Source of the DNA: Acidimicrobiia bacterium
GTDB taxonomy: Bacteria > Actinomycetota > Acidimicrobiia > Spongiisociales > UBA5794
Direction of reading: 5' to 3'
Assembly (NCBI GenBank): GCA_030066715.1
Contig: JASJBC010000038.1
Location: 1-32,036, forward strand
DNA length: 32,036 bases
The position numbers were made by a program, and so were the translations under genes. Positions 1,769-30,535 of the stretch are shown in pieces (position 1 is the first letter of the stretch; every line of letters begins with the position of its first letter). The notes beneath the pieces are model-generated. The model was not told the origin of the DNA. It saw nothing but the letters and a program-made list of their open reading frames with translations, and ran no database searches.

Positions 1769-2464
1769 CTAGAAGGTTCGCTCCACCGATGTGCCCTCCA
1801 ACCGCATCATGCTGCGATGCAGCGCTTCCGCCATCCGGAAGTCCTTCTCCTCGTCGATGTCGACCGACTCGTAGGGATCCATCTCCCACATCATGGTGCG
1901 CGACGTGATCCTGGCGTCCTCCTCGAAGAATGCCTTTCGCTCGAACAGATAGAGGTTTGAGTTCTCCAGGTAGATGGGGTCGAGATCCTGTGTTGGCAGA
2001 AGCTCCTCGGGGTTGTGGTTGAGCGCCTCCCCGGCCTTGTCGTAGAGCCGAGCCTGGATGCGATCCACTGTGAACAGGCTGGTGACGGCGTCGTTGGCGA
2101 AGTACGCATCGACTGCGGCGTCGATCGTGGCAGCAGACAGCAAAGGGTTCGTGCAGTGTGTTTGCCCGAGGTGCTCAACGTGGGGATGGTCGACCAGGAA
2201 GTCCTTGATGAGCCAGTTGACCGAGATTTCGTGACCGAGCAGTTCATCTTTGCGCCTGACGACCGTGACCGTATCGAACCCCGCCGCAGACTCTGCGATG
2301 ACGTCGCTGTCGGTGTCGATGTAGATGCCCCCCACCCGCTCGGCCGCCTCGAGTGTCGCCACAATCGTGTGAAACAGCGGGCGCCCGCCGAAGGGGCGCA
2401 TGTTCTTGCCGGGCACGCGCTCCGACTTGCCCTTCAGTGGGATGAAGATGTCGATCGTCCTCAC
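1769..2464 (-). CDS. NeuA-like cytidylyltransferase (acylneuraminate family)
   Basis: The predicted enzyme couples CTP to an acidic sugar, giving a CMP-sugar. The 231 residues begin with the nucleotide-binding signature IPLKGKSERVPGKN (residues 9-21), closer to NeuA/PseF than to KdsB. Other landmarks are QTHCTNPLL, NHNPEELLPTQDL and a C-terminal SVDIDEEKDF, with the acidic pair expected to bind metal. The GTG start overlaps the stop of the upstream aldolase (GTGA), and GGGAGGAA lies just upstream inside the aldolase gene, so the two are translationally coupled. The exact sugar cannot be read from sequence. Neighbouring aldolase, dehydrogenase and phosphatase genes suggest an ulosonic-type acid. 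The stop lies 13 nt from the convergent GtrA gene. Confidence 0.88.
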   Translation of the reverse strand: MRTIDIFIPLKGKSERVPGKNMRPFGGRPLFHTIVATLEAAERVGGIYIDTDSDVIAESAAGFDTVTVVRRKDELLGHEISVNWLIKDFLVDHPHVEHLGQTHCTNPLLSAATIDAAVDAYFANDAVTSLFTVDRIQARLYDKAGEALNHNPEELLPTQDLDPIYLENSNLYLFERKAFFEEDARITSRTMMWEMDPYESVDIDEEKDFRMAEALHRSMMRLEGTSVERTF

Positions 2465-3237
2465 GCTGTTCCTCCCCGAAGTCTGCCGATGTCGTTGTCG
2501 ACCTTCCTCATGTGATGGGCAAAGAAGAGCATGTCGGACGCATAGGCGATGAACCTGTACCCGTCGTCGATCATTCTCTCGAGACGCTCCGGTTCGGGCT
2601 CGACCACGTGGACACCGGCGAGCACCTTGGGTCGTTTCACGATGGCGGCGACTCTGTCCATCGCAGCAACGACGTCCGGGTGATCGAACTCTCCGGGATG
2701 ACCCAACGAAGCCGACAGGTCGTAGGGACCGATGAAGAACCCATCGACACCGGGGACGGCCAGGATCTCCTCGAGATGATCGACACCGTCTATGTGCTCG
2801 ACCTGCATGATGCAGACCAGTTCGCGTCCCATCCGCTCGAGATAGTCGGGGAAGCCGACTCCGTACTCCTGCGCCCTGGCCAAGCCGACGCCCCGCGTGC
2901 CCTGCGGTGGGTAGGTGGCCGCGGCGACGATCTCGGCGGCTTGCTCCGGTGTGTTGACCATAGGGGCGATGATCCCGGTGGCTCCGGCATCGAGCACCCG
3001 CTTGATCTGGGCAGGATCGTGAGAGCTCAGCCGCACCAGGACGGGGCATCCGGCCAGATCGGCGATGCGGATTACCCGGCCGGCTTGGTCGATGCCGATC
3101 GTCGTGTGCTCCAAGTCGATGCACAACCAGTCAAACGGCCCCGTGGCCAGCATCTCCGTCAGCGCCTCGTCGCCGAGTTGGATCCATGATCCGATCGTCG
3201 GCTCACCGGTTTCGATAAGGTCTCTGAGCGTCGCCAT
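2461..3237 (-). CDS. HpcH/HpaI family class II pyruvate aldolase
   Basis: Family members reversibly join pyruvate to an aldehyde to give a 2-keto-3-deoxy or 4-hydroxy-2-oxo acid, using a divalent metal. The 258-residue length is normal. Visible signatures are DLEH (41-44, catalytic His region), VRL with Arg69, LDAGATGIIAPMVNT (82-96), the YPPQGTRG loop (109-116), the metal ligand Glu147 in QVEH, and FIGPYDLS with Asp173. The ATG at 3237 is preceded by GAGGAAA about 8-10 nt upstream. It is the first gene of a minus-strand pair with the cytidylyltransferase, divergent from the dehydrogenase gene. Catabolic HpcH enzymes sit in aromatic or glucarate operons. The partners here point to synthesis of a nucleotide-activated keto-deoxy acid instead, which is inference. 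Confidence 0.9.
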   Translation of the reverse strand: MATLRDLIETGEPTIGSWIQLGDEALTEMLATGPFDWLCIDLEHTTIGIDQAGRVIRIADLAGCPVLVRLSSHDPAQIKRVLDAGATGIIAPMVNTPEQAAEIVAAATYPPQGTRGVGLARAQEYGVGFPDYLERMGRELVCIMQVEHIDGVDHLEEILAVPGVDGFFIGPYDLSASLGHPGEFDHPDVVAAMDRVAAIVKRPKVLAGVHVVEPEPERLERMIDDGYRFIAYASDMLFFAHHMRKVDNDIGRLRGGTA

Positions 3238-3262
3238 CAGGCTCGTTTCCTCGGTGTGACAA

Positions 3263-3280
3263 CCGGTCTGAGGAGACCGG
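3263..3280. promoter_or_regulatory. Perfect dyad CCGGTCT-N4-AGACCGG between divergent genes (candidate operator)
   Basis: Two 7-bp arms are separated by GAGG. The dyad lies between the aldolase gene and the dehydrogenase gene, at the -35 position of the putative plus-strand promoter whose -10 is TAGCCT at 3293-3298. For the minus-strand gene it would fall in the 5' leader as a short hairpin. It could be an operator for a dimeric repressor or a leader hairpin; the sequence alone does not decide. Confidence 0.45.
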
Positions 3281-3292
3281 GCCACCGTAGGG

Positions 3293-3298
3293 TAGCCT
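3293..3298 (+). promoter_or_regulatory. Putative -10 element (TAGCCT) for the dehydrogenase-HAD-GT operon
   Basis: TAGCCT fits the actinobacterial TAnnnT -10 pattern. It stands 39 nt before the ATG at 3338, leaving a leader that contains AAAGG at 3326-3330 as ribosome site. Overlapping TACCCT on the minus strand could serve the divergent aldolase gene. No clear -35 hexamer is visible. Confidence 0.35.
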
Positions 3299-3337
3299 AT
3301 TGCAATACCTGCTCTCCTTCCGCCGAAAGGACCCGCG

Positions 3338-4267
3338 ATGGGACAGCGCGCAGTCGCGATCACTACCTCCAACTTCAACATGGACGCCCCTCTGCTCGAT
3401 GAGTTTCGAGCCGGGGGATGGGAGATCGTGAGGAGCCAATACGGGCGCAAGTTGACCGAGCAGGAAGTCACCGAACTGCTCGCCGACGGTGGCGTGATCG
3501 GCATGGTGGCCGGCGTGGAGCCGTTGACGAGGGCAGTGTTTGCGGCGAACCCGCAGCTGAAGGTCATCTCGCGATGTGGCACCGGCTTTGACTCCGTGGA
3601 TCGTGATGCCGCCGCTGAGCACGGGATCACTTGTGTCAACACGCCGAATGCGCCGGCCGCGGCGGTGTCGGAGATGACTATCGGGATGATGATGGCAGCG
3701 CTGCGGCGCATCCCGGAGACCGATCGTGCGATCCGTGGCGGCACCTGGAAGGCATTGATGGGCTCGCTGCTGGCCAAGCGACACGTCGGCATCGTGGGGT
3801 TGGGACGTGTCGGCCGGCGGGTTGCCGATTTGGTGTCGGCTTTTGGCGCCGACGTCACCTACTACGACCCACACGTGGCGACGGCCGAATACGACCGCGC
3901 TTCGTCGGTGACCGAACTGGCGGAGCGTGTCGATCTGCTCACCATCCACATCCCTCTGGCGGCCGACACCCGCAACCTCATCAGCGCAGATGTCATCAAC
4001 GCGCTGCCTGCCGGCTCCATCGTCGTCAACGCCGCGCGCGGCGGGGTGCTCGATGAGGAAGCTCTCGCCGCTGCTCTCGAGTCGGGACGGCTCGATGCGG
4101 CCGCCATGGACGTCTTCGCCGAAGAGCCCTATGCGGGCCCGCTGTGCGGCGTCGAGAACGTCGTGCTCACCGCTCACATGGGCTCGTATGCCAAAGAGGC
4201 GAGACAGCTGATGGAGAACGAGGCACTACAGAACCTGCTCAACGCCCTCCAGGAGTTGGACGTATGA
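3338..4267 (+). CDS. D-2-hydroxyacid dehydrogenase (SerA/phosphoglycerate dehydrogenase-like)
   Basis: An NAD(H)-dependent enzyme predicted to interconvert a 2-keto acid and a D-2-hydroxy acid. The 309 residues show the dinucleotide motif GIVGLGRVG (151-159), an acidic residue (Asp177) suggesting NAD preference, and the catalytic triad Arg234 (NAARGG), Glu263 (FAEEP) and His280 (LTAHMGS). It has no C-terminal ACT or other regulatory domain, so it is a short-form enzyme unlike feedback-regulated SerA. AAAGG lies 7 nt before the ATG. It overlaps the HAD gene by 4 bp. Placed beside an aldolase and a cytidylyltransferase it may oxidise or reduce an intermediate of an acid-sugar route. A serine-biosynthesis role is less likely because no serC or serB neighbours are visible. 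Confidence 0.88.
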   Translation: MGQRAVAITTSNFNMDAPLLDEFRAGGWEIVRSQYGRKLTEQEVTELLADGGVIGMVAGVEPLTRAVFAANPQLKVISRCGTGFDSVDRDAAAEHGITCVNTPNAPAAAVSEMTIGMMMAALRRIPETDRAIRGGTWKALMGSLLAKRHVGIVGLGRVGRRVADLVSAFGADVTYYDPHVATAEYDRASSVTELAERVDLLTIHIPLAADTRNLISADVINALPAGSIVVNAARGGVLDEEALAAALESGRLDAAAMDVFAEEPYAGPLCGVENVVLTAHMGSYAKEARQLMENEALQNLLNALQELDV

Positions 4268-4944
4268 CCGACCTGGCTGATGTCGTCGATCTGATCGTCT
4301 TTGACTTCGACGGGACGATCTGTGAGTCGGCTGACGTCAAGACGGAGGCCTTCTACGAGCTCTATCTCGACGAGCATGGCGAGGAGTTTGCTACGCAGGT
4401 CCGCGACTACCACCTGGTGCACGCAGGCGTCTCTCGCTACGACAAGATCAGGTACTACGAGGAGGAGTTGCTCGGTCGAGAGTGCACTGAGGAGCGGATG
4501 AGCGAGGTGGCAGATCGATTCGGCGGCATCGTGCGGGACAGGGTCATCGCCTCGCCGCTCGTGCCCGGTGTTGCCGCATTCTTCTCCCGGTATCGCAACG
4601 CAGTTCCGATGCTGGTCGCTTCTGCGACGCCGACCGCAGAGCTGCGTCAGATCATTGCTGCGCGCGATATGACCTCCTGGTTCGACGCAGTCGAGGGCAG
4701 CCCGGCGCTCAAGGGTGACATCATCAAGCAGTTCCTGGCCGAACGGGGTGCCCTCCCCCAGCGGGCGGTCATGGTGGGGGACCAATTCTCCGACCTCGAC
4801 GCCGCTGTCGCCGCAGGTGTGCATTTTGTCGCCTATCGGCCACCGCATGAGGAGCGGCTGTTTGACGGAGAAGTGCTAGTGGTCGGGCACTTCGACGAGC
4901 TCGCCGACGCAATCGCGACGTTGGCAGGTGGAGGCCTGTCGTGA
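4264..4944 (+). CDS. HAD-superfamily phosphatase (phosphoglycolate phosphatase-like)
   Basis: The 226-residue protein has all four HAD motifs: FDFDGT with nucleophile Asp14 and general acid Asp16, the motif II serine in VASATPT, the lysine in ALKGD, and GDQFSDLD with the metal-binding acidic residues. An alpha-helical cap fits between motifs I and II, as in subfamily I phosphatases. AGGAG at 4251-4255 lies 8 nt before the ATG, and both ends overlap neighbouring genes by 4 bp. By analogy with KdsC-like steps it could remove phosphate from an acid-sugar intermediate before CMP activation. The substrate is unknown, and a phosphosugar mutase role is possible. Confidence 0.88.
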   Translation: MTDLADVVDLIVFDFDGTICESADVKTEAFYELYLDEHGEEFATQVRDYHLVHAGVSRYDKIRYYEEELLGRECTEERMSEVADRFGGIVRDRVIASPLVPGVAAFFSRYRNAVPMLVASATPTAELRQIIAARDMTSWFDAVEGSPALKGDIIKQFLAERGALPQRAVMVGDQFSDLDAAVAAGVHFVAYRPPHEERLFDGEVLVVGHFDELADAIATLAGGGLS

Positions 4945-6275
4945 AACTCAAAGGGCTGCTCGGCTACCTCGTCGGCTGGCGTCTTGCAGTCGTCGGTGCC
5001 GGTCTTCTCGTGGCTTGGATCGTGGTCGTGGTCGGCTTTGACGTCACTTTGGCCGACTCATTGCTGATGGTCGTTGTTGCCGTGATGTTGCTTGGGCCCG
5101 TGCTGCTGCTTCTGGCGCGGCAGGGCACTCTGGCCGACGAGCGCTACGAGCGGCTGACGGCCCGGGTGGAGAGAATCGACGGCGTGCTCGGGTCGGGGGC
5201 CGGGTCGTTGCGGGATGTCGCAGCTCGTCTCGACAAGGTCGACGAGGTGCTCGCGGACTCGGTGCGCAAACCGCTCGACCCGACGGCTCTGCCCTGGCCG
5301 ACACCGGTGGGGAAGTCGGCTCCAATCCTGCTGTTGCCCAGCGCTGCGTATCACCTGGGCGAGATCATGCCTTTGCACGATGCGCTCAACCGCCGCGGCT
5401 ACGAGACGATGGTCGCCGTCGGCGATGCCCATTGGCCGCGTATCGCCACGGGACTGAGCTGGTACGACACGCCCGTGTTTCGGCTCCCCGATCCAGAGCT
5501 GGCCGCCTCCGGGCTCCGCGCCGTGGTCTCCATGAAGGACTGGGCCGGCTACGGCGAAGTGGTCGCAGCCGCGAAAGAGGCGGGTGTCCCGACGTTTGCG
5601 AAGGTAGAGGGCGCCCAGGACTTCAGTGACGCCGACACCCCGTACGAACGGGCGGCATACAGGCTTGCGGATCACATCCTTTGCCAGGGCAAGAACGACT
5701 TCGATGCCCTCGACGGCAGCCGGTACATCGTCGGCAGCAGCCGTCTCGAGCGCCTCTTCCATGCGCCCGTTCTCCCCCAAGACGGCGACCACGTCGTGAT
5801 CAACCTGAACTTCACCTACGGCGTCTTGGAGGAGGAGAGAGCAGCTTGGATCGAAAGCGCAGTCGCCGCCTGCGAGCAGCTCGGGCTGCCCTACACGGTG
5901 GCGCTCCACCCGGCAGAGCGGCGTACCCGCAGCGTGCCCCATGCGAGCACGATTCCGATATCGAGACTGTTGCTGCGGGCGACAACTCTGGTGAGCCGCT
6001 TCTCAACGGTGCCTTTCGAGGCGATGGCACGCGGGATTCCTTTTGTGTATCACAATCCGCACGGAGAGAGGGTTGCGACGTTTGCGCACGGTGGGGATGC
6101 TTTTCGGAGAACCAACGACACTGTGGAGCTGGCGGCCGCGCTCGAGGAAGCGCGCGGGTGGAGGGACGACTACCGGGACCGTTGCTCTGTGTTCTTCTCC
6201 CGCCAGGTGGACGTCGATCCGGAGGTGTCCTCCGAGGATCGTGCGGCAGATCTGATATACGGGATGCTGGGTTAG
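4941..6275 (+). CDS. Membrane-anchored GT-B-like glycosyltransferase or glycerophosphotransferase-like protein
   Basis: The 444-residue protein starts with two hydrophobic helices (about 13-35 and 38-60), then a charged, probably coiled-coil segment (about 65-110). The soluble domain has GT-B features: an N-terminal half with LLPSAAYHLGEIMPLHDALNRRGYE and a C-terminal half with VINLNFTYGV, TVALHPAE, and STVPFEAMARGIPFVYHNPHGE, which resembles the donor-site region of CDP-glycerol or capsule-type transferases. GTG at 4941 has GGAGG 6 nt upstream and overlaps the HAD stop. As last gene of the operon it is the natural candidate to transfer the sugar made by its neighbours. I could not fix the family, so donor and acceptor are unknown. 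Confidence 0.65.
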   Translation: MKLKGLLGYLVGWRLAVVGAGLLVAWIVVVVGFDVTLADSLLMVVVAVMLLGPVLLLLARQGTLADERYERLTARVERIDGVLGSGAGSLRDVAARLDKVDEVLADSVRKPLDPTALPWPTPVGKSAPILLLPSAAYHLGEIMPLHDALNRRGYETMVAVGDAHWPRIATGLSWYDTPVFRLPDPELAASGLRAVVSMKDWAGYGEVVAAAKEAGVPTFAKVEGAQDFSDADTPYERAAYRLADHILCQGKNDFDALDGSRYIVGSSRLERLFHAPVLPQDGDHVVINLNFTYGVLEEERAAWIESAVAACEQLGLPYTVALHPAERRTRSVPHASTIPISRLLLRATTLVSRFSTVPFEAMARGIPFVYHNPHGERVATFAHGGDAFRRTNDTVELAAALEEARGWRDDYRDRCSVFFSRQVDVDPEVSSEDRAADLIYGMLG

Positions 6276-6304: not shown

Positions 6305-6334
6305 CCGTGGTTCCGTGATGTGAGGAGTGGAGAA

Positions 6335-7516
6335 GTGGTCGACGAGCAATCGCCATCCGGTGGGTCCGGATTCAGTGGCCTGATCGAGACGGTCAAGAAA
6401 CGCCCCGTGTTGTTCGGTGGCTTGGGTGTGCTCGTGCTGGCGGCCATCGTGGCGATAGTCGTGGTGGCCATGGGTGGGGGTAGTGACGATGAGCCTGGGG
6501 ATGATGTTGCTGCGGACGCTACGACATCGACAACCGCCGGGGCGCCGGCGGTGGCTCCTCCCACCGGTGGGGCGACCGCGCAGGACACGCTCCCCGGCGA
6601 CGATGACACCCCGGCCCCTGCCCTCGAGGTCGATCGCAATCCGCTCACCGGTGCGCCGCTGAGCGCAGCCAGCGCCGACCGCGTTGTCGCCGTCAAGGTC
6701 GACAACGCTCCGGAGGCGGGACCCGCGATCGGGATCCAGGATGCGGAGCTGATCATCGAGGCCCCCGTCGAGGGCGGTCTCACCCGTCTCACTGCGATGT
6801 TCTTCGAGAACGAGCCGACCGTCATCGGGCCGATCCGCTCCGTACGCCCCATCGATGCCGATCTTCTCTCCCCGTGGCGTCCCTTCCTGGTGACAACCGG
6901 CGGACAGAGCTTCGTATACCGGGAGATCCTCGCCGCCGGTGTGGAGATTCTCGATGAAGGCACCGACGGCTTGTTCCAGCAGATAGAACGGCGCCAGCCG
7001 TATCACCTGGTGGCGACGATCCCGCTGATCGAGGCAGAAGCCGGCCAGGGTGCGCCCCCGGTAGCGGCCCTGCCGTTCGGCGACGAGGAGCTTGGCGGCA
7101 CTGCGGCTGCTTCGGTGGCCATCCCGTTCTCCGGCGTGGCCGACGTCGTATGGGAATACGACTCGGCCACCGACCAATACGCTCGCATCGTGAACGGCGA
7201 GCCGTATCAGATCTTCCCCGAATACGACGCCGAGCTCACTGACTTCGGCACCGATACGGTGATCGTCATGAAGGCGGCGCAGCGTTCGGCCGGCTACACC
7301 GATGCAGCGGGAATGGACGTACCCACGTTTGACGTAATCGGGTTCGGCGACGTCCTCGTGTTCCACGGTGGAGAGGTCCGCACCGGGCAGTGGTTGCGGG
7401 CTGCCCAATCCGATGGCTGGTTCTTTCTCGACGACTCCGGGGCGCAGTTCACGATCCCGATCGGGTCCGTGTGGCTCGAAATAGTGCCTCGCTTCGTCGA
7501 TGTCACGGTGAGATAG
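6335..7516 (+). CDS. DUF3048 domain protein, single N-terminal membrane anchor
   Basis: The 393-residue protein has a cytoplasmic N-terminus of about 25 residues, one membrane helix (about 26-50, PVLFGGLGVLVLAAIVAIVVVAMGG), a Thr/Ala/Pro/Asp-rich linker to about 105, then a DUF3048 (YerB-like) domain. Its landmarks are NPLTGAPLS, RVVAVKVDN, VEGGLTRL and IGPIRSVRPID, with a C-terminal sheet ending VWLEIVPR. The domain's function is unsettled; it is extracytoplasmic in Gram-positives. GTG at 6335 was chosen because AGGAG at 6323-6327 is 7 nt upstream. GTG at 6320 would add five residues without a ribosome site. A second DUF3048 gene, a lipoprotein, lies at 29409-30521. Confidence 0.88.
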   Translation: MVDEQSPSGGSGFSGLIETVKKRPVLFGGLGVLVLAAIVAIVVVAMGGGSDDEPGDDVAADATTSTTAGAPAVAPPTGGATAQDTLPGDDDTPAPALEVDRNPLTGAPLSAASADRVVAVKVDNAPEAGPAIGIQDAELIIEAPVEGGLTRLTAMFFENEPTVIGPIRSVRPIDADLLSPWRPFLVTTGGQSFVYREILAAGVEILDEGTDGLFQQIERRQPYHLVATIPLIEAEAGQGAPPVAALPFGDEELGGTAAASVAIPFSGVADVVWEYDSATDQYARIVNGEPYQIFPEYDAELTDFGTDTVIVMKAAQRSAGYTDAAGMDVPTFDVIGFGDVLVFHGGEVRTGQWLRAAQSDGWFFLDDSGAQFTIPIGSVWLEIVPRFVDVTVR

Positions 7517-7678: not shown

Positions 7679-8782
7679 ATGAACGGCATGATGCGAGCCA
7701 CGCTCGCGTTTGTGCTCGTAGTAGGGGCGCTGGCCTCTCCGGGCACTACCGCACCCAAGGCAGAAGCCGACATCTACGGCGACACGATGTATTTCCCCGT
7801 TGTCGGGGACAACCACTATTCGGACACCTTTGGGGCCCCGCGCGGTAGTGGTCGTGTTCACCACGGTGTCGACATCATGGCGGCCAAGATGACACCTGTG
7901 GTTGCCGTTGCCGACGGGACCGTCGGTTGGATGCACGACGACCAGGGCGGGAACTGTTGCGCCATGTCGCTTCGCCACGACGACGGTTATGAGTCGTGGT
8001 ACATCCACCTCAACAACGACACGCCCGGCACCGACGATGGCAAGGGCTGGGGTTTCGCTCCCGGGATCGAGTCCGGAGCCCACGTCTTCGCCGGGCAGCT
8101 GATCGGATGGGTGGGGGATAGCGGCAACGCCGAACATGTTTCTCCGCATCTCCATTTCGAGCTTCACGACCCGAACGGCCGCGTGCTCAACCCAACCGAC
8201 CACGTTGATGCTGCCCACGTTCTCGACGAACCGCTGCTCGCCCCGTACACCGGGTCCTTCCGCGACGACGAGTTCTCGGTCCACCAGGCCAACATCGACA
8301 AGATCGCCGAGGCCGGAATCACCAGAGGCTGCAACCCGCCCGACAACGACAGGTTTTGCCCGGAACGCAAGATCACCCGCGGCGAGATGGCGGCATTCTT
8401 GCGGCGCAACCTCGAGCTCCCCACCCCGGAGGGCGACTTCTTCGCCGACGACACCGAAAGCATCTTCCACGCCGACATCAACGCCCTGACCGCGGTCGGG
8501 ATTGGGTTCGGTTGTACGGACACCGACTACTGCCCGGACCGACCGCTCCAGCGCGACGAGCTGGCGGAGCTGTTCGTGAGGGCATATGGGTTCGAGAACC
8601 CGGAGGGGACGGACTTCTTCAGCGACGATGACGGGAACCCGTTCGAGGCTTCCATCAATGCGATGGCTGCGAATTCGATCACGATGGGCTGCAACCCGCC
8701 GGACAACACCGAGTACTGCCCGGATCGTGAGCTGAGTCGCGAGGAGATGGCTTCGTTCTTCGCCCGGGCGCTGGATCTGTAG
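7679..8782 (+). CDS. Secreted M23 (LytM) peptidase with three C-terminal SLH-like repeats
   Basis: M23 enzymes cut peptidoglycan peptide cross-bridges outside the membrane. The 367-residue protein has a signal peptide (about 1-30, ending AEA), then a complete LytM zinc site: His61 and Asp65 in HHGVD, His110 in the YIHL segment, and His157/His159 in HLHFE. Residues about 192-367 hold three SLH-like repeats, each with a Cys pair (GCNPPDN..FC, GCTDTDYC, GCNPPDN..YC) and a TRGE- or SREE-like motif. These should anchor the enzyme at the cell wall. The gene is expressed from the sigma-28-type promoter and structured leader upstream. The ribosome site is poor (GAGAGAAG). It ends 9 bp from a convergent gene with no evident terminator. 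Confidence 0.9.
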   Translation: MNGMMRATLAFVLVVGALASPGTTAPKAEADIYGDTMYFPVVGDNHYSDTFGAPRGSGRVHHGVDIMAAKMTPVVAVADGTVGWMHDDQGGNCCAMSLRHDDGYESWYIHLNNDTPGTDDGKGWGFAPGIESGAHVFAGQLIGWVGDSGNAEHVSPHLHFELHDPNGRVLNPTDHVDAAHVLDEPLLAPYTGSFRDDEFSVHQANIDKIAEAGITRGCNPPDNDRFCPERKITRGEMAAFLRRNLELPTPEGDFFADDTESIFHADINALTAVGIGFGCTDTDYCPDRPLQRDELAELFVRAYGFENPEGTDFFSDDDGNPFEASINAMAANSITMGCNPPDNTEYCPDRELSREEMASFFARALDL

Positions 8783-10779: not shown

Positions 10780-12549
10780 ATGCGAATTTGCCTGGTTGCA
10801 GTTGGCCGGTACTGCAACGATCCCCGTGCCAGAACCCTTGCCGGCAGCCTTGCTCGCGTCGGTCACGAAGTGACGGTGATCGCCAGCGGGCGGGAGACAG
10901 ATTGCGCCGCTGAAGGTGTTGACGTGCGGTTCATACCCACCCGCTACCCGGTGGGACGAGGCCGGCTGGGGAAGCTCCTGCGCCGGCTGCAGACCCGGGG
11001 GATGCGGGAACGGCTCCATCACCGGAAACTGGCGGCTGCGGTCCGTGACACCAACCCGGACATCGTGTACCCGACCTCGGAGCCGGCTGTGGCCGTGGCG
11101 GCAGCGGCGGTCGAGGGAACGCAGGGAACCGTTGCCCGCGACCCGCGTTGGGTAAACGCCGGACCGCGCGACCTGGTTGATCTGGCTCCGCACAATCCGG
11201 AGTTGAACGTCTCCCCGGCGGGTCGCGGTGGTCCCTATCTGACGCCAGATGATCCCCGTAAGCCACATACACCCGAACCGGGGCGCTACCAACATCTGCG
11301 GGTGGCGCTGTGCTACCGCAAGACCGATACCAACCCCGGCAAATACCTCGAAGCCGCAATGATTCGCTCGGGAATGAAGGTCGACCTGCATACCGAGGAG
11401 ATCGACTGGAACACGATCCCTGCGGACACCGATGCGGTGGTTTTCGTGGAGGGCCCGTATCCGGCGTTGACGGTCAAAGGGCGGAATCCCGGCGTGCCCG
11501 TCTTGTTCTGGGTGCACCACGGTGAGCACCACATCCCAACGAACTTGCGGCTGGTCGAGCGCTACGGAGCCCATGCCGTCCTGCTGGCGCACTCCTGGCA
11601 CCTGGCCCACCGTTTCCCGGTGCCGGTACACAGATTTACGTTCGGGGTCGCCCCAGAGCTCGTCAAGGCAGCGGTGCCGTGGCCGGACCGGAAGTACGCG
11701 GCGTCGATGGTCGGCGGGCAGTTGCGCCGCGAGGGTGGTACCTATGCCCGCCGGCAGCAGCTCGTCCATGATCTCGAGACTGCGTTGGGGGAGGAGAACA
11801 CGGCGTTTGTCTCCGATGTGACCGCACTGGAGATGGCCGATATCTATGCCGAGGCGAAAACCATCATCAACGAGGGGGGCACTCGCCACTATCCCATCAC
11901 CATGCGGGTTCTCGAGACCATCGGGTCCGGTGCGATCCTGATCACCGACGATCTCCCCGGCACGGATCTGATCGTCGATCGCAAGCACTACTTCGTGTTG
12001 CAGGACGACGTGGTCGCCCAGGTGAAGGAGATCGTTGCCCAGCCCGACAAGATGGCCGCCCTTGCCGCCGAGGCAAGGGAGCAGGCGCTTGCGCTCCATA
12101 CCTACGACCACAACGTGGACGACATGGTCGAGATCCTCGGCTCCATCGACGCAGCCATTCCGCCCGCAGCAAGGCCCACCCTGAGTCCGATGGCTGCGCT
12201 GATCGACGACGACGTCGAGGTGCAGCGGCTTGCCCAGTTCGGTCTGTCCGACCTTGCCGGCGAACTCAGCAGCAGGGAGGTCTGGGACGGTGCGGAACGC
12301 ATCAGCCGGCTCAACCCCGACACGATGGAGGCGGTCGCCATTGGTAGCGACGGGACGGAGCACCTCGATCGGGCGCTTCGTGCGGCGCGACGGTACATCT
12401 ATGCGGCGGGCGACATCGATGCGATCGAGGAGTATGTGGCCGGAGAACTGCCGGACGCCACGGTGACGAAACACGGCGATCTGATCCGGGTCGACCTCAA
12501 CGCTGAGTCCTACCGGGTTCTGGCCCACGAACGTACTATCACCACGTGA
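10780..12549 (+). CDS. Composite glycosyltransferase with CgeB-like C-terminal domain
   Basis: The 589-residue protein has two unlike parts. Residues 1-about 120 look like the acceptor half of a GT4 enzyme (MRICLVAVGRYCNDPRARTLAGSLARVGHEVTVIASGR). From about 174 a second GT-B-like unit begins (RVALCYRKTDTNPGKYLEAAMIRSG), including VLFWVHHGEHH, a SMVGGQLRREGGTYARRQQLV segment, and YPITMRVLETIGSGAILITDD, as in CgeB/GT1-type spore-coat transferases. The last 110 residues (about 470-589) form an unassigned acidic domain. The gene overlaps the following GT2-pyruvyltransferase gene by 4 bp, so the two products likely act on the same surface polysaccharide. The ATG appears leaderless. Donor and acceptor are unknown. 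Confidence 0.75.
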   Translation: MRICLVAVGRYCNDPRARTLAGSLARVGHEVTVIASGRETDCAAEGVDVRFIPTRYPVGRGRLGKLLRRLQTRGMRERLHHRKLAAAVRDTNPDIVYPTSEPAVAVAAAAVEGTQGTVARDPRWVNAGPRDLVDLAPHNPELNVSPAGRGGPYLTPDDPRKPHTPEPGRYQHLRVALCYRKTDTNPGKYLEAAMIRSGMKVDLHTEEIDWNTIPADTDAVVFVEGPYPALTVKGRNPGVPVLFWVHHGEHHIPTNLRLVERYGAHAVLLAHSWHLAHRFPVPVHRFTFGVAPELVKAAVPWPDRKYAASMVGGQLRREGGTYARRQQLVHDLETALGEENTAFVSDVTALEMADIYAEAKTIINEGGTRHYPITMRVLETIGSGAILITDDLPGTDLIVDRKHYFVLQDDVVAQVKEIVAQPDKMAALAAEAREQALALHTYDHNVDDMVEILGSIDAAIPPAARPTLSPMAALIDDDVEVQRLAQFGLSDLAGELSSREVWDGAERISRLNPDTMEAVAIGSDGTEHLDRALRAARRYIYAAGDIDAIEEYVAGELPDATVTKHGDLIRVDLNAESYRVLAHERTITT

Positions 12550-15161
12550 CCTGGCACGTTGCCCCCGAGAACGACTACCGCGGTGTGCGCCAGCTGTCGC
12601 CGGGCCCTCCGCCAAAGGTTGCGGTCGTCATCCCGGTGTACAACCGCATCGAGCTGCTTGCGAACACACTGAGTGCTCTGGCCGCCCAGACGTACGAGTC
12701 GTTCGAGGTCGTAGTCGGCGACGACGGGTCAGAAGAGGATCCCGGCACGGCGGTAGCTGCCGTCGCAGGTCGTATCGACGTGAAGCTGGTTCGGCAGGAA
12801 CACCGCGGCTACGGGGCCGGTCGAGCCCGGAACCTCGGCGCCTCCCACACCGATGCCGACGTGCTCGTCTTCATCGATGCCGATTGCATCCCTGACCCTG
12901 AGCTCGTCGCCCGCCACGCCGACTGGCACCGTCATGCGGACAACCTCGTCGTCATCGGGTCACGCCACCACCTGGACACGACCGATGTCGACAGAGATGA
13001 CCTCGTCGCCGGAGCCGCCGCGCTCCGCGACCGTGTGGCTGCGGAGCAGGATGCGGACGCCGCACTGGTGCCCGATGACTTCCGCCGGGTGTTCTACCGC
13101 CGCACCGCGGGGCTTCGCCTCGGTGACGAAGCTTTCCGGTCCTTGGTTTCGTCGAATTTCTCCATCAGGCGCGACGGTTTCCTCGAAGTAGGAGGGTTTG
13201 CTGAGGACTTCGGGCGCTGGGGTGGCGAGGACACCGAGCTGGGATGGCGCCTGTTCAACGCCGGCTTCTTCTTCGTCCCGGAGAACGAGGCAATCATCTA
13301 TCACCAGACCCAGCAGGACGAGGGAGACTCGCCGGATTGGCGGCAGAAGGCCCGTGCGGCCAACGACGGCATCATCCAGGCCAAGATCCCGCACAGGTTC
13401 TATCGCAAGTCCGAGCGGGGGTACATCTACGAGTCGCCAAAGGTCAGCTGGATCGTGACCCCGACGGTTCCGGAGCGGGCCGCAGAGCTGTGGCACCAGC
13501 TCCTCAAGCAATCTTTCACCGACTTCGAGGTGTTCTTCATGGGTGGGGACGAGCTGGTCGACCGGCTCGGCGAGACCCTCGCCGGGGATCCTCGCCTGCG
13601 GGTGACCCCACCGGGGAATGATCAGTTCGCCGACGCGTTGCGGGCCGCCCAGGGCGAGTACGTCGCCCTGCTCCACGGGTGGGCGTCTCTGGACCATCGA
13701 CTCCTCGGCCGTGCCGTGCGCCGACTTGATGCCAATCCGCGCAGCTCGATTGTGCGCAGCGGCTACCAGATCGTGACCGGCGATGGGAACACCGTGTACC
13801 TGTACGACGAGGCCGTGCACGATCTCGATGCGGAGTGGGGTGAGCTGCCCGTGTTTGCGCTGACACGCCGCCGCGAGTGGGCAAAGGTCGCACCGGCGGG
13901 AGGTTCGCCATCCGACCTCTGGGAAGGTGTCGTCACCCTTTCCGATGTCAAGGCCGTCCGCGACGGCATGGTCGCCCTGCCGGCATCGAGTCCGCGCGAC
14001 CAGCTCCCCGACGAGTTCCCTGCGATAACCGGGGAGCGCACCCTGTTTGTCGAAGATCTCACCAAGGGCGGGGTGAAGCGAAAGGCGACAGCGCTCGCCC
14101 GGTTCGCGACGGCCAAGGCGCAACGCAAGCCATATCGGGCTATCGGGTTGACGTCCGGGGCGGCACAGAGTCTCCCCACCAGGCAAGCCGACGAGCAGAA
14201 ACCCGGCGTGTCGTACATCGGCTGGTTGGGACGAAAGAACTTCGGTGACGAGATCATGCTCCAGGCAATCCAGGAGCTCCTCCCCGCCGCGCGGGTTGGC
14301 TACGAAGCGCCCGGAGCAAAGCTCCTACTGCTCGGGGGCGGGACACTCATCAACCGGTTGACGTACCTGGAAGCCCTGCGTCGTCACGACAGCCCGCGGG
14401 TGGAGCGGGTGGTGTTTGGGGCCGGTGTGGCCGATCCCGACTACTGGGGTTTGACCGAGCCTGTCGATCAGTGGATCGACTTCCTGGATTCGTGTTCGTA
14501 CGTGGGTGTGCGCGGGCCCCGCTCCAAGGCGATTCTCCGCGAGTGGGGATATGTGGGCGATCTGGAGATCATGGGTGACCCCGGGCTGTCGGTGCGGCCG
14601 ACGGGCTCCGTCGTTGTCGATGACGGCTTGGTGGTCATCAGCCCTGCCTTCACGGAAGGTGAGCTGTGGGGAGAGAGCGACGAGCGCGTGTTCGCCGCGA
14701 TGAGCGACCTAGTGGAGTCCTTGCTGCGGTCGGGTCGTCGCGTCGCTTACCTGTCGTGCCACCCCGGGGACGATCGTTTCATCATGGACATCATGCGCCG
14801 CTCGGGTTCTGTCGACTCGCACTACGTGGCTGCGTATGCGGACCACGAGGCCGGTCTCGAGCTGCTGAGCCAGGCAGCGGTGGTCGTCGCCGAACGGCTT
14901 CACGCCGCCGTCATCGCCGCTGCCGGTGGAACACCGTTTGTGGCCATCGAGTACCGGCCGAAGATCCGCGACTTCGCCCGATCGGTCGATCAGGACGACC
15001 TCGTGGTGCGCAGCGACGAAGTGACAGCCGGAAGGCTGATGGAGCTGGTCGAGCAGGCAACGTTCGGTGACCATGCCGAATTGCTGCACCACGCAGTCGA
15101 GAACTACCGCAGCCGGCAACGGCGCGTCGCCGGGGAACTCATGGAGATCCTCCAGAAATAG
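12546..15161 (+). CDS. Fusion: GT2 glycosyltransferase + polysaccharide pyruvyltransferase (CsaB-like)
   Basis: This 871-residue protein joins two catalytic functions. Residues about 24-270 form a GT2 domain with VVIPVYNR, VVGDDGS, the metal motif DADC (111-114) and GGEDTELG (226-233), which holds the probable catalytic base. Residues about 298-480 resemble a second, degenerate GT2-like unit. Residues about 553-850 form a polysaccharide pyruvyltransferase domain: YIGWLGRKNFGDEIM, LLLLGGGTLIN, VGVRGPRSKAIL, VVAERLHAAVIAAAGGTPFVAIEY. CsaB-type enzymes add a ketal pyruvate to cell-wall polysaccharide, the ligand of SLH domains. GTG at 12546 overlaps the previous stop. Genes for SLH-like proteins begin 39 nt downstream, which supports a shared envelope role. 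Confidence 0.88.
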   Translation: MTWHVAPENDYRGVRQLSPGPPPKVAVVIPVYNRIELLANTLSALAAQTYESFEVVVGDDGSEEDPGTAVAAVAGRIDVKLVRQEHRGYGAGRARNLGASHTDADVLVFIDADCIPDPELVARHADWHRHADNLVVIGSRHHLDTTDVDRDDLVAGAAALRDRVAAEQDADAALVPDDFRRVFYRRTAGLRLGDEAFRSLVSSNFSIRRDGFLEVGGFAEDFGRWGGEDTELGWRLFNAGFFFVPENEAIIYHQTQQDEGDSPDWRQKARAANDGIIQAKIPHRFYRKSERGYIYESPKVSWIVTPTVPERAAELWHQLLKQSFTDFEVFFMGGDELVDRLGETLAGDPRLRVTPPGNDQFADALRAAQGEYVALLHGWASLDHRLLGRAVRRLDANPRSSIVRSGYQIVTGDGNTVYLYDEAVHDLDAEWGELPVFALTRRREWAKVAPAGGSPSDLWEGVVTLSDVKAVRDGMVALPASSPRDQLPDEFPAITGERTLFVEDLTKGGVKRKATALARFATAKAQRKPYRAIGLTSGAAQSLPTRQADEQKPGVSYIGWLGRKNFGDEIMLQAIQELLPAARVGYEAPGAKLLLLGGGTLINRLTYLEALRRHDSPRVERVVFGAGVADPDYWGLTEPVDQWIDFLDSCSYVGVRGPRSKAILREWGYVGDLEIMGDPGLSVRPTGSVVVDDGLVVISPAFTEGELWGESDERVFAAMSDLVESLLRSGRRVAYLSCHPGDDRFIMDIMRRSGSVDSHYVAAYADHEAGLELLSQAAVVVAERLHAAVIAAAGGTPFVAIEYRPKIRDFARSVDQDDLVVRSDEVTAGRLMELVEQATFGDHAELLHHAVENYRSRQRRVAGELMEILQK

Positions 15162-15185
15162 TGCGGCTTTGCGCCCGAGCCCAAC

Positions 15186-15191
15186 TATCGT
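15186..15191 (+). promoter_or_regulatory. Putative -10 element (TATCGT) of a leaderless transcript
   Basis: TATCGT lies 8 nt before ATG 15200, the same spacing as at 10766-10771. There is no Shine-Dalgarno sequence. The GTG at 15161 that overlaps the upstream stop would put 13 extra residues before the signal peptide, so the ATG at 15200 is preferred. Confidence 0.4.
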
Positions 15192-15199
15192 CCGAAGTC

Positions 15200-16930
15200 A
15201 TGCGCACACTCTTTGCATCTGCAGTGATAGTCGCCTCGGTTGTGGCGATGACGGCAACGGCTCTGGCCGATCTTCCCCCAGGGGGATCGTTCCGGGATGA
15301 CAACGGCAACGTCCACGAGGGGTACATCGAAGCGATCGCCGCCGAGGGGATCACCCGCGGCTGCAATCCTCCGCTCAACGACGAGTACTGCCCGTCCGAC
15401 TCTGTCACGCGCGGGCAGATGGCTGCTTTCCTGGTTCGCACGCTCGACCTCAGCGATGACGGCGGCACCGACTGGTTCACAGACGACAACGGCAATATCT
15501 TCGAGGCGGACATCAACAAACTGGCGACTGCCGGTATCACGCTCGGGTGCAATCCGCCCGACAACACCAACTTCTGCCCGGCGGACAGAGTCACTCGCGG
15601 GCAGATGGCGGCATTCCTGGTGCGGGCCTACGGATACACAGATTCCGGCTCCGGCGACTACTTCACAGATGATGACGGGTCGGTTTTCGAAGCAAGCATT
15701 GACCGGCTTGCAGCCGCCGGCATCACCCTCGGGTGTAATCCGCCAGACAACGATCTCTACTGCCCATACTCGTATGTGCAGAGAGACCAGATGGCGACTT
15801 TCCTCGGACGGGCCGAGGGCTTCACGCAGATGGTCCCACCGCCCCCGACCGTGCCCAGGGTCGAGACCATCGTCTCCGGGCTGAGTTTCCCCTTGTATGC
15901 GACCTCTCCCGACGGTGACGATCGTCTCTTCGTCGTCGAGAAGGGCGGTTACATCCGCATCGTGGAGAATGACGTGCTCCAGTCCGGTGCGTTCCTCGAC
16001 GTCAGCACCCTCGTTTCCCTCGGCGGGGAGCAGGGGCTGCTCGGGCTGGCGTTCCACCCGGAATACTCGAGCAACGGCCTCTTCTACATCTCGTATACGG
16101 ACAAATCCGGAGACTCGAAGATCGTGGAGTACTCGGTGTCCGCCGATCCAGATGTGGCGAACGCCGGCTCGGCCAGGACGATCATTGAGGTCAACCAGCC
16201 CTACTCGAACCACAACGGGGGGATGATCCTGTTCGACCAGGACGGCTATCTGCTGTTCGGTCTTGGTGACGGCGGATCAGGCGGGGATCCCTTGGAGCAC
16301 GGTCAGAACGCAGGCACGCTGCTGGGCTCCATGCTTCGGATCGACGTCGATGGGGACGACTTCCCCTCCGACTCCAGCCGCAACTACGCCATACCGGCCG
16401 ACAACCCGTTCGTGGGCAAGAGCGGGGCCGATGAGGCTTGGGCCATTGGTCTGCGCAATCCCTGGCGATTCTCGATCGACCCGGATACCGATCTGCTGTA
16501 CATAGGCGACGTCGGCCAGACTCGGTGGGAGGAAGTCGATGTCGCTCCGATGTCGGATGCGGGGCTCAACTATGGCTGGAACCCCTTCGAGGGCGACCAG
16601 TGCTACGACACCGGTGACGGCTGCAACCCGGCCGGTCTGACGTTCCCGGCGGTCGCCTACCCGCACTCCCAAGGTTGCTCGGTCACAGGTGGGTACGTCT
16701 ACCGGGGCGATGAGATGCTCGATCTCGTCGGCCACTACTTCTACGCCGACTACTGCCGCGGCCAGCTGCTCAGCTTCCGATACGTGGACGGTGTGGTTGG
16801 GGCCGAGCGCAACTGGACGCCCGAGGTGGGTGCGCTCGGTGCGGTCACGTCATTCGCCGTCGACAACTCCAATCGTCTTTATATCTTGAACAGCTCGGGA
16901 AGTCTCATGCGGCTGGCGCCGACGCCATGA
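15200..16930 (+). CDS. Secreted glucose/sorbosone dehydrogenase-like propeller with N-terminal SLH-like repeats
   Basis: A signal peptide (1-23, ending ALA) precedes three SLH-like repeats at about 28-206, each with GCNPP and a YCP or FCP cysteine. A proline linker (PPPPTVP) leads to a GSDH domain (about 220-576). The domain shows GLSFPLYATSPDGDDRLFVVEKGGYIRI, GLLGLAFHPEYSSNGLFYISY, the catalytic-type His in SNHNGG, LLFGLGDGGSGGDP, GLRNPWRFSIDP and GLNYGWNPFEG. Related enzymes oxidise aldoses with PQQ, but many such family members are uncharacterised, so the activity is unproven. The repeats are N-terminal here and C-terminal in the three sister genes. The stop overlaps the next ATG by 4 bp, giving an operon with the M15 gene. 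Confidence 0.88.
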   Translation: MRTLFASAVIVASVVAMTATALADLPPGGSFRDDNGNVHEGYIEAIAAEGITRGCNPPLNDEYCPSDSVTRGQMAAFLVRTLDLSDDGGTDWFTDDNGNIFEADINKLATAGITLGCNPPDNTNFCPADRVTRGQMAAFLVRAYGYTDSGSGDYFTDDDGSVFEASIDRLAAAGITLGCNPPDNDLYCPYSYVQRDQMATFLGRAEGFTQMVPPPPTVPRVETIVSGLSFPLYATSPDGDDRLFVVEKGGYIRIVENDVLQSGAFLDVSTLVSLGGEQGLLGLAFHPEYSSNGLFYISYTDKSGDSKIVEYSVSADPDVANAGSARTIIEVNQPYSNHNGGMILFDQDGYLLFGLGDGGSGGDPLEHGQNAGTLLGSMLRIDVDGDDFPSDSSRNYAIPADNPFVGKSGADEAWAIGLRNPWRFSIDPDTDLLYIGDVGQTRWEEVDVAPMSDAGLNYGWNPFEGDQCYDTGDGCNPAGLTFPAVAYPHSQGCSVTGGYVYRGDEMLDLVGHYFYADYCRGQLLSFRYVDGVVGAERNWTPEVGALGAVTSFAVDNSNRLYILNSSGSLMRLAPTP

Positions 16931-19011
16931 GGGCCGGTGCAGTGAGGTGGGTCTTGGCGGCGCTGATGGTCGCGGCCTTGTTGCCGGTGGCAGCACCGGC
17001 CGGCGCGGTCGTTGGGGAAGGCACTGCCACCATCTCCACCAACGAGTCATGGGGCTGTGGCCAACCGTCCACCGATGGCAGCTACGCCTCCAAGACCGGG
17101 AGCCTGGCCAACACCGAGCCGATTGGCGGACCCCGTGCCGAATTGCTCGGGCGGAGCATCGGCGAGATTCGCGACGACCTGGTTTGGTGGACCGTCCCCA
17201 TGTCCGGTGGCTATCGAGTCCTCATGCATGAGCGTGCGCTGCCTGCTCTCGATCAGGTCACGGCCAACCTGGCTGCGGAGCAGGCCAAAGGCAACTATTA
17301 CGCCATCAAGCCGAGCCAGACATACGGCTTCTCGCCCCGGACCATCGGCGGCCGGTATCAGCTCTCGCTGCATGCTCACGGCATCGCCATCGACATGAAC
17401 ACCGCATCCAACCCGTATCGAGGCGACAACGTCCTCATCACCGACATGCCGGCGTGGTTCGTGAAGGCGTGGACCGATGCCGGGTTCTGCTGGGGCGGCG
17501 ATTGGAAGTACGTGAAGGACCCGATGCACTTTGCGTGGATGGGCCCGGCCGCCACACCCGGGTACGAGGCCGTCCCCGATGCCTATCCGACCCGGACCGC
17601 GGCTGCGGGTTTCTCCGAGCAGGCATTGCGCACCACGACCGAGTTCGGGACGGTCAACGCCGACTATCGATACCTTCTCGGCGACGGTGACAGCGACGGC
17701 GTGGCCGATGTCTTCCAGCTGGTACCCCGGGAGAATGGGACTCGCCTCGAGTACTCCCAGAGCGATCGCAACCACGATTGGTGTTCCGTCGGCAGAGACC
17801 ACGCCACGGATGTCCACCTCGACGGCAGGGTTGCCCTTCTCGGCGACTATTCGCGAGTGGGGCGCAACGATCTGCTGCTCCTCGACACAGGTGGGCCGAC
17901 CCTGGACATCGAGGTGTCCCTGAAGCCGACGGGATTCGCCGAGTCGATCATGATCGCAACCTCCATCCCGGTGGAACCTGGTGACGATTACCTGCTGGGA
18001 GATCACAACGCCGACAGCCATATCGATCTCTACGTCGTTCGCCGCGATCTCGAGGCAACGAGCCTGGAGATCTACAGCGGTGCCGATGACTTCGCCACCC
18101 TTCTCGCCGAGGTGAACACCAATCTCGGGGACACGACACCCAGCCAGTTCACGCTGGGCGACACCAACCTCGATGAGCTCCCGGATCTGTTCGTCATCAC
18201 CCCGGTTGGTTCGTCCACCGAGGTCGAGGTCCTACATAATGGCTATCTGACCGTGGATCACACGTTCTCGGTAGACATCTCTGGCACCTTCATCGACGTC
18301 TTGGTCAACGACTACGACGGGGACGGGCGTGGCGATCTGTGGTTCTGGGATGACACTGGGACGTTGACGGTGCGCTTGGGCAACACCCGTCTGGCCGGCG
18401 TTCCGGTGAACTTCTGGCACAACGATCCGAATTGGGAGTGCGACCCGGATGCCCAGGCGTACGCCCATGACGGGATCTTCCGCGACGACGACGGCAACCT
18501 CCACGAGAACAACATCGAGAAGATCGCGCTCGTTGGGGTGACCAAGGGATGCAACCCGCCATTCAACGACGACTACTGCCCCGACAGCTACGTGACCCGC
18601 GGCGAGATGGCTGCCTTCCTCGTCCGTGCCTTGGGTCTCAGTGACGACGGTGGTCGCGACTGGTTCGGTGACGACGACGGCTCGGTCTTCGAGGCCGACA
18701 TCAACAAGCTCGCTGCGGCCGGCATCACCTTGGGATGCAACCCGCCTGCAAACGACAGCTTCTGCCCGCAGGACCGCGTGAGCCGAGAGCAGATGGCGGC
18801 GTTCCTCGTCAGGGCATTGGGCCTGACCGACGGAGCGGGCAGCGACCGGTTCACCGATGACGACTCTTCGATCTTCGAGGACCATATCGACCGTTTGGCG
18901 ACCGCAGGCATCACCCAAGGCTGCAATCCGCCGACCAACGACGAGTTCTGCCCAACGAACAACGTCCGCCGCGACGAAATGGCCAGCTTCCTGGCCCGCG
19001 CGCTGCCGTGA
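16927..19011 (+). CDS. Secreted M15 (VanY-like) carboxypeptidase with FG-GAP repeats and SLH-like repeats
   Basis: The 694-residue protein has a signal peptide (about 1-27, ending AGA). Its M15 domain (about 60-205) has the zinc site SLHAHGIAID (Ser147, His149, Asp156) and DPMHF (Asp198, His201), plus GFCWGGDW. VanY-like enzymes trim D-Ala or peptide ends in peptidoglycan. Residues about 250-480 contain five FG-GAP/VCBS-type units with Asp-rich loops, for example DGDSDGVAD (253-261) and DYDGDGRGD (462-470), likely calcium-binding. Three SLH-like repeats (about 516-694) end the protein. ATGA overlap with the dehydrogenase-like gene indicates co-translation. A long hairpin follows the stop by 3 nt. 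Confidence 0.9.
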   Translation: MRAGAVRWVLAALMVAALLPVAAPAGAVVGEGTATISTNESWGCGQPSTDGSYASKTGSLANTEPIGGPRAELLGRSIGEIRDDLVWWTVPMSGGYRVLMHERALPALDQVTANLAAEQAKGNYYAIKPSQTYGFSPRTIGGRYQLSLHAHGIAIDMNTASNPYRGDNVLITDMPAWFVKAWTDAGFCWGGDWKYVKDPMHFAWMGPAATPGYEAVPDAYPTRTAAAGFSEQALRTTTEFGTVNADYRYLLGDGDSDGVADVFQLVPRENGTRLEYSQSDRNHDWCSVGRDHATDVHLDGRVALLGDYSRVGRNDLLLLDTGGPTLDIEVSLKPTGFAESIMIATSIPVEPGDDYLLGDHNADSHIDLYVVRRDLEATSLEIYSGADDFATLLAEVNTNLGDTTPSQFTLGDTNLDELPDLFVITPVGSSTEVEVLHNGYLTVDHTFSVDISGTFIDVLVNDYDGDGRGDLWFWDDTGTLTVRLGNTRLAGVPVNFWHNDPNWECDPDAQAYAHDGIFRDDDGNLHENNIEKIALVGVTKGCNPPFNDDYCPDSYVTRGEMAAFLVRALGLSDDGGRDWFGDDDGSVFEADINKLAAAGITLGCNPPANDSFCPQDRVSREQMAAFLVRALGLTDGAGSDRFTDDDSSIFEDHIDRLATAGITQGCNPPTNDEFCPTNNVRRDEMASFLARALP
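18670..18707 (+). repeat. 38-nt direct repeat, copy 1 (inside SLH-like repeat)
   Basis: These 38 nt, coding for the DDDGSVFEADIN region of an SLH-like repeat in the M15 gene, are identical to 20772-20809 in the SpoIID gene, 2.1 kb away. Identity at the DNA level across two genes suggests recent duplication or gene conversion. Confidence 0.8.
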
Positions 19012-19066: not shown

Positions 19067-19181
19067 GTCTGTGGCCCCAGTTAATGCCAGGAGGGTATTG
19101 GGCATAGCGCAGGAGTTATACGATTATTGAGCAATCCCGGTGGCACTCAAGGTGTATCGCCGGACGTCGATAGCTGGAAGT

Positions 19182-30521: not shown

Positions 30522-30529
30522 GAGGGGGG

Positions 30530-30535
30530 AGTGTA
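30530..30535 (-). promoter_or_regulatory. Putative -10 element (TACACT) of a leaderless transcript
   Basis: Read on the minus strand, TACACT is followed by exactly 8 nt and then GTG 30521. No ribosome site exists in those 8 nt. This repeats the spacing seen at 10766-10771 and 15186-15191. Confidence 0.45.

What the first reader, a model, noticed from the sequence alone, without database searches (positions are those of the whole stretch)
1769..6275. Possible CMP-acid-sugar pathway that uses an HpcH/HpaI aldolase instead of a NeuB/KdsA synthase
A NeuA-like cytidylyltransferase is translationally coupled to a pyruvate aldolase, and divergently arranged with a D-2-hydroxyacid dehydrogenase, a HAD phosphatase and a membrane GT-B-like protein. 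Known CMP-ulosonic acid routes condense phosphoenolpyruvate with a sugar using NeuB or KdsA, neither of which is here. A free-pyruvate aldolase making the keto-deoxy acid, followed by dephosphorylation, CMP activation and transfer, would be an unusual route.
Basis: inference. Interest (0 to 1): 0.6.

Follow-up and report, generated by a model that had tools for sequence, protein, structure and literature searches.

The report
Aldolase-based CMP-sugar-acid pathway genes
These five genes are the local copy of a widespread and apparently undescribed bacterial gene set that seems to build and activate an acidic sugar with a metal aldolase instead of the usual NeuB or KdsA synthase, then attach it to a surface glycan; no chemistry has been tested, so the sugar itself is unknown.

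Summary
Window 1769-6275 holds a NeuA/PseF-like cytidylyltransferase (CMPt) overlapping an HpcH/HpaI aldolase by 4 bp, divergent from a second overlapping operon: D-2-hydroxyacid dehydrogenase (DH), HAD phosphatase and a membrane protein with a predicted GT-B fold. It is not a local accident. CMPt relatives sit beside this aldolase in about 50 distinct loci of at least 9 phyla, usually with DH and HAD. KdsA is in none of these loci; NeuB is in two.

The linked aldolases form one clade with invariant Tyr172 and His210. In an independent genome sample all 12 aldolases with this signature lay near a CMP-ulosonate cytidylyltransferase, against 0 of 57 other HpcH aldolases; five of the 12 had a true KdsB-family partner instead of the NeuA-like one. 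The partner type changed at least 4 times on the tree. This supports the aldolase making the 2-keto acid that is CMP-activated.

Donor, acceptor, product and reaction direction are untested. The GT-B protein belongs to a motif-rich family without a Pfam model. I found no paper describing the system.

The parts
1769..2464 (-). CMPt: NeuA/PseF-like CMP-ulosonate cytidylyltransferase (231 aa, GTG start)
   Evidence: PF02348 E=1.3e-19; best NCBIfam PseF, 65 bits, far below cut-off 206; aligns to NeuA structures with DxD (D202/D204) and Q101 kept
2461..3237 (-). ALD: HpcH/HpaI class II metal aldolase (258 aa), Tyr172/His210 subfamily
   Evidence: PF03328 E=1.4e-35; nearest solved structures are HpaI/RhmA/GarL-type aldolases; residues compared; clade
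3238..3337 (.). divergent intergenic region between the two operons (probable shared promoter region, inferred)
   Evidence: sequence; promoter activity not tested
3338..4267 (+). DH: D-2-hydroxyacid dehydrogenase, nearest to phosphoglycerate dehydrogenase but below its cut-off
   Evidence: PF02826 E=1.6e-51; TIGR01327 239 bits vs cut-off 454; nearest PDB 1wwk; catalytic R234/E263/H280
4264..4944 (+). HAD-family phosphatase (226 aa)
   Evidence: PF00702 E=2.1e-16; D14/D16, K150, D173/D177 conserved across 38 cluster relatives
4941..6275 (+). GTB: predicted GT-B-fold glycosyltransferase with N-terminal hydrophobic and coiled-coil helices (444 aa)
   Evidence: no Pfam/NCBIfam hit; relatives share INxNFTYGV, SRFSTxxxEA, YHNPHGE motifs; AlphaFold pLDDT 79.7, Foldseek GT-B hits

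Best explanation
The five genes are one instance of a widespread CMP-activated ulosonic-acid module. SHOWN: gene order and coupling; conservation of CMPt + aldolase + DH + HAD across phyla; a dedicated aldolase clade tied to cytidylyltransferases of two kinds (NeuA-like or KdsB-family); no KdsA and almost no NeuB in these loci; a GT-B-fold protein that travels with CMPt. INFERRED: the aldolase (metal-enolate chemistry) joins a 2-oxo acid (pyruvate most likely, hydroxypyruvate possible) to an aldehyde or aldehyde phosphate and so makes a 2-keto (3-deoxy) sugar acid; HAD removes the phosphate; CMPt joins CMP from CTP to the anomeric 2-OH to give the CMP-sugar acid; GTB transfers it to a surface glycan at the membrane. 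DH carries out an NAD-dependent oxidation or reduction of a 2-hydroxy/2-oxo acid that supplies the donor or acceptor or adjusts the product; which of these is unresolved.
For: (1) 80 genome-contig loci from CMPt alignment A1 plus class relatives: CMPt 87, DH 75, ALD 48, HAD 38 of 88 clustered loci; CMPt and ALD within 100 bp in 32 of 53 ALD loci; 41 of 53 hold all four genes (three of the 53 are duplicate fetches). (2) KdsA in 0 of 98 loci examined (E. coli kdsA locus as positive control), NeuB in 2 of 53 ALD loci. (3) Converse test: of 69 HpcH aldolases from Actinomycetota, Flavobacteriaceae and Campylobacterota genomes, 12 have Y172+H210, and 12/12 lie near a CMP-ulosonate cytidylyltransferase (7 NeuA-like within 1.5 kb; 5 KdsB-family adjacent or within 2 kb) against 0/57 others. 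(4) The five KdsB-like partners reach the curated TIGR00466 kdsB cut-off. (5) Aldolase tree: all linked aldolases on one side of a branch with SH-aLRT 99; partner type changes at least 4 times. (6) GTB relatives in the class sample only in genomes that have CMPt, with relatives in Campylobacterota and Bacteroidota CMPt loci.
Against: DH is not needed by the simple aldolase-phosphatase-CMP route, yet it is nearly always present and persists without the aldolase. Many relatives carry further genes the window lacks (epimerase-family PF01370, cyclase PF04199, YhcH); no cyclase relative was found in the own MAG. No enzyme activity, sugar structure or expression data. The linkage counts are not phylogenetically independent. 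The MAG is 76% complete, so an unlinked NeuB/KdsA cannot be excluded. Three of the five KdsB-variant loci also carry a NeuB within about 10 kb, in surroundings that look like a separate nonulosonate cluster.
Confidence: 0.68

Rival explanations
1. The 2-keto acid is made mainly by oxidation: a sugar is oxidised at C1 (short-chain or epimerase-family dehydrogenase), opened by a lactonase-like enzyme, and DH oxidises C2 to give a 2-ulosonic acid for CMPt; the aldolase only reshapes or shortens the chain (retro-aldol/aldol).
For: CMPt + DH + SDR without any aldolase in about 25 of 84 loci; PF04199 cyclase and PF01182 lactonase-type genes recur and alternate in the operons.
Against: The window set has neither an SDR nor a cyclase; the aldolase clade is tightly coupled to the cytidylyltransferase and keeps that partnership through at least 4 partner changes; the DHs of the two architectures differ in conserved positions.
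Confidence: 0.2
2. Ordinary NeuB- or KdsA-type pathway: the synthase lies elsewhere in the genome (or in the missing 24%), and the aldolase makes an unrelated side product.
For: MAG is only 76% complete; NeuB occurs near two ALD loci and three KdsB-variant loci.
Against: Across 53 ALD loci KdsA is never and NeuB only twice present in the stretch; the own genome shows only DAHP synthases; the aldolase, not a synthase, is the constant partner of the cytidylyltransferase.
Confidence: 0.08
3. Chance neighbourhood of unrelated carbohydrate and acid-metabolism genes.
For: HpcH aldolases and D-2-hydroxyacid dehydrogenases are common families.
Against: Same set in at least 9 phyla, with overlapping genes in the window; 12/12 against 0/57 linkage by subfamily.
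Confidence: 0.02

Closest known systems
CMP-nonulosonate pathways (NeuB-NeuA; PseI-PseF; LegI-LegF)
   Same: NeuA/PseF-like cytidylyltransferase with the DxD motif, in a glycan gene region with glycosyltransferases
   Different: No NeuB in the set; an HpcH/HpaI metal aldolase takes its place beside the cytidylyltransferase; D-2-hydroxyacid dehydrogenase nearly always present; cytidylyltransferase far below the PseF cut-off (65 vs 206 bits)
CMP-Kdo pathway (KdsA-KdsC-KdsB)
   Same: Logic of C-C bond formation, HAD phosphatase, CMP activation; sister loci L145 and L205-L208 use a true KdsB-family enzyme beside the same aldolase clade
   Different: KdsA missing; aldolase with a free 2-oxo acid inferred; the HAD here resembles PGP/beta-PGM-type HADs rather than a demonstrated KdsC
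HpcH/HpaI (GarL, RhmA, HpaI) class II pyruvate aldolases
   Same: PF03328; all shared catalytic and metal residues; 32% identity to GarL and RhmA
   Different: Well-studied members are catabolic; this clade has Tyr172 (Ala/Ser in RhmA/GarL), His210 (Leu in both), mostly His148, and is tied to CMP-ulosonate cytidylyltransferases
GT-B glycosyltransferases / CDP-glycerol polymerase TagF
   Same: GT-B fold by predicted structure; TagF among the best Foldseek hits
   Different: No detectable sequence family; own motif set (INxNFTYGV, SRFSTxxxEA, YHNPHGE); some members fused to GT2 domains

Membership tests
NeuB/KdsA-dependent CMP-ulosonate pathway | PEP-dependent NeuB or KdsA synthase linked to the cytidylyltransferase | tested here: not met
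   No PF03102/PF00793 member in the window set; own-genome hits are DAHP synthases; KdsA in 0 and NeuB in 2 of 53 ALD loci. The MAG is incomplete.
NeuB/KdsA-dependent CMP-ulosonate pathway | CMP-ulosonate cytidylyltransferase (PF02348) with catalytic motif | tested here: met
   substrate not tested
HpcH/HpaI class II aldolase | PF03328 family with metal ligands Glu/Asp, pyruvate-binding Arg and catalytic His | tested here: met
   E147, D173, R69, H44 conserved with GarL/RhmA
HpcH/HpaI class II aldolase | metal-dependent aldol activity on pyruvate or hydroxypyruvate | not testable with these tools
   needs purified enzyme
Pseudaminic acid cytidylyltransferase PseF (TIGR03584) | score above the curated cut-off of 205.7 bits | tested here: not met
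   64.8 bits
Phosphoglycerate dehydrogenase SerA (TIGR01327) | score above the curated cut-off of 454 bits | tested here: not met
   238.9 bits; the position aligned with a SerA Arg is Val60 here
GT-B glycosyltransferase | two Rossmann-like domains of the GT-B type | tested here: met
   predicted model only: pLDDT 79.7, Foldseek E to 2e-11, query TM-score about 0.5
GT-B glycosyltransferase | transfer of the CMP-activated acid | not testable with these tools
   co-occurrence with CMPt only

The most novel reading that the evidence does not exclude
The aldolase uses hydroxypyruvate (made from glycerate by the partner D-2-hydroxyacid dehydrogenase) rather than pyruvate, so that the product is a 3-hydroxy (non-deoxy) 2-ulosonic acid, activated as its CMP derivative and added by a new GT-B family: an acid-sugar class with no known pathway of this type. 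The polar His210 and Tyr172 near the donor/aldehyde pocket and the nearly constant DH permit this but do not show it.
Probability: 0.18. Interest if true: 0.8.

Novelty: new variant of a known kind. Interest (0 to 1): 0.66.

Why it matters
CMP-activated acidic sugars (sialic, legionaminic, pseudaminic acids, Kdo) are known as products of PEP-dependent synthases of the NeuB/KdsA kind. A dedicated aldolase clade coupled to NeuA-like or KdsB-type cytidylyltransferases in at least nine phyla would be a second way of building them, would let genomes be read for acidic sugars that NeuB-based surveys miss, and points to a glycosyltransferase family without a Pfam model. It makes a concrete question testable: which aldehyde and which 2-oxo acid does this aldolase join?

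Tried and rejected
A KdsA/NeuB gene elsewhere in the MAG: the only hits are DAHP synthases. DH as a true phosphoglycerate dehydrogenase: nearest by score but below cut-off, and a SerA Arg position is not Arg, so the neat 3-phosphoglycerate to hydroxypyruvate route was not adopted. His210 alone as a signature: rejected, it is common in other HpcH aldolases; the Tyr172 + His210 pair is what separates the clade. Klebsiella K38, recalled as containing a 3-deoxy-pentulosonic acid, as a known structure made this way: the papers held gave no gene information on it. Plasmid search for named hosts with the same aldolase: only HpcH hits below 42% identity. Literature searches for HpcH with cytidylyltransferase, O-antigen, CMP-Kdo, ulosonic acid: nothing relevant.
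Full report
WHAT IS THERE. The window is contig C144 of an actinobacterial MAG (3.14 Mb, 239 contigs, 76% complete). At 1769-6275 two divergent operons leave a ~100 bp gap. Leftwards: an HpcH/HpaI aldolase (ALD, 2461-3237) and a PF02348 cytidylyltransferase (CMPt, 1769-2464) with a 4-base stop/start overlap. Rightwards: a D-2-hydroxyacid dehydrogenase (DH, 3338-4267), a HAD phosphatase (4264-4944) and a membrane protein (GTB, 4941-6275), again with 4-base overlaps. The rest of the contig carries further glycosyltransferases, a GT2 fused to a polysaccharide pyruvyltransferase domain, a UDP-sugar dehydrogenase and SLH-domain proteins, which fits cell-surface glycan synthesis.

ACTIVE-LOOKING ENZYMES. 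ALD keeps the class II residues shared with E. coli GarL and RhmA (W18, D41, H44, R69, E147, D173). DH keeps Arg/Glu/His. HAD keeps DxD, Lys and the acidic motif. CMPt keeps the NeuA-type motifs. GTB has no Pfam or NCBIfam model; its predicted structure (mean pLDDT 79.7) is a GT-B fold, best matched by UDP-GlcNAc 2-epimerases, GtfD and TagF. Its relatives share INxNFTYGV, SRFSTxxxEA and YHNPHGE motifs.

CONSERVATION. In the class, CMPt occurs in 13 of 296 genomes. In the window's family it sits with ALD, and where the contig is long enough with DH and HAD; in other families of the class it mostly sits with DH and an SDR. A scan of 84,980 species genomes gave 80 loci from many phyla. In 88 clustered loci the commonest neighbours are DH (75), ALD (48), HAD (38), a PF01370 epimerase-family protein (38, some of them probably unrelated), an SDR (34) and a PF04199 cyclase (30). 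On a CMPt tree ALD loci number 51 and DH+SDR loci 25 of 84. In 53 ALD loci (three are duplicate fetches), DH is in 46, HAD in 41, KdsA in none and NeuB in two; named phyla are Bacteroidota, Campylobacterota, Thermodesulfobacteriota, Actinomycetota, Pseudomonadota, Chloroflexota, Myxococcota, Bacillota and Balneolota. The full five-gene set including GTB is seen in the window, in G226 (L017/L029) and in G058 (L018/L030).

CONVERSE TEST. HpcH aldolases were collected without regard to neighbours from Actinomycetota, Flavobacteriaceae and Campylobacterota genome samples. Of 69, twelve carry Tyr172 and His210; 57 do not. Seven of the twelve have CMPt within 1.5 kb. The other five (L116/L145, L169/L205, L170/L206, L196/L207, L197/L208) have a KdsB-like enzyme next to ALD or, in L145, about 2 kb away, plus DH and mostly the same companion genes. 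All five reach the curated kdsB cut-off. None of the 57 others has CMPt or that KdsB within the stretch. Fisher p is 1e-13, not corrected for shared ancestry. The tree is the better argument: linked aldolases are one side of a branch (SH-aLRT 99), and within them the partner changes at least four times between NeuA-like and KdsB-like. An aldolase that keeps company with two kinds of CMP-ulosonate synthetase most probably makes their 2-keto acid substrate (inference).

MECHANISM. Inferred order: ALD condenses a 2-oxo acid with an aldehyde (phosphate); HAD dephosphorylates; CMPt activates; GTB transfers. Class II aldolases of this family take pyruvate and, in some members, hydroxypyruvate with hydroxyaldehydes to give 2-keto acids (PMC7610986). 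In AbHpaI the residue corresponding to His210 (Leu214; my alignment through E. coli HpaI Leu212) lines the aldehyde pocket (PMC8560999). A His at this position is not rare in the family; Tyr172 together with His210 is what marks this clade. DH is the unexplained constant: it is present with and without ALD, and a Gfo/Idh-like oxidoreductase (read by eye, not family-searched) follows ALD in L057 and L074, which lack DH. So an NAD(P)-dependent redox step probably belongs to the pathway, but I cannot say whether it supplies donor or acceptor or adjusts the product.

LIMITS. No biochemistry; MAG incomplete; locus counts share ancestry; only open-licence PMC papers were searched and none describes this, so novelty is relative to that library and to my own knowledge.

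Noticed in passing
L020-L027, L033, L052, L055, L061, L103, L107 and others: Second architecture: CMPt + D-2-hydroxyacid dehydrogenase + SDR (often + GT2) without the aldolase and mostly without NeuB, in cyanobacteria, Chloroflexota, Geobacteraceae, Clostridia and Methanosarcina.
   Followed up: partly
L045, L057, L059, L074, L095: Third architecture: aldolase and CMPt together with GmhA-like isomerase, AroB-related TIGR04425 sugar phosphate phospholyase, Gfo/Idh and SDR (in varying subsets), suggesting a cyclitol-linked variant.
   Followed up: partly
G000:C29 (L155:1-1449): Second GTB paralogue (46% identical) in the own genome, near GT2-domain proteins and an ABC transporter ATPase like those of polysaccharide export.
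   Followed up: partly
window 12546-15161: GT2 domain fused to a polysaccharide pyruvyltransferase domain (PF00535 + PF04230) in one 871-aa protein.
   Followed up: no
window 7679-8782, 15161-16930, 16927-19011, 19140-21113: Four proteins with SLH-type repeats carrying a GCNPP motif, joined to M23 peptidase, GSDH, M15 peptidase and SpoIID domains; a possible shared cell-surface anchoring system.
   Followed up: no
window 6320-7516 and 29409-30644: A DUF3048 protein directly downstream of GTB (tested) and, by eye, a second DUF3048-like protein at the other end of the contig (not tested).
   Followed up: no
L167, L199: Two aldolases of the linked clade show one stop each within their match (TAG, TGA), possibly decayed copies or assembly errors.
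   Followed up: no
L077:10425-12145: Two genes that look by eye like a split transketolase downstream of ALD and an epimerase-like gene, a possible source of the acceptor aldehyde.
   Followed up: no
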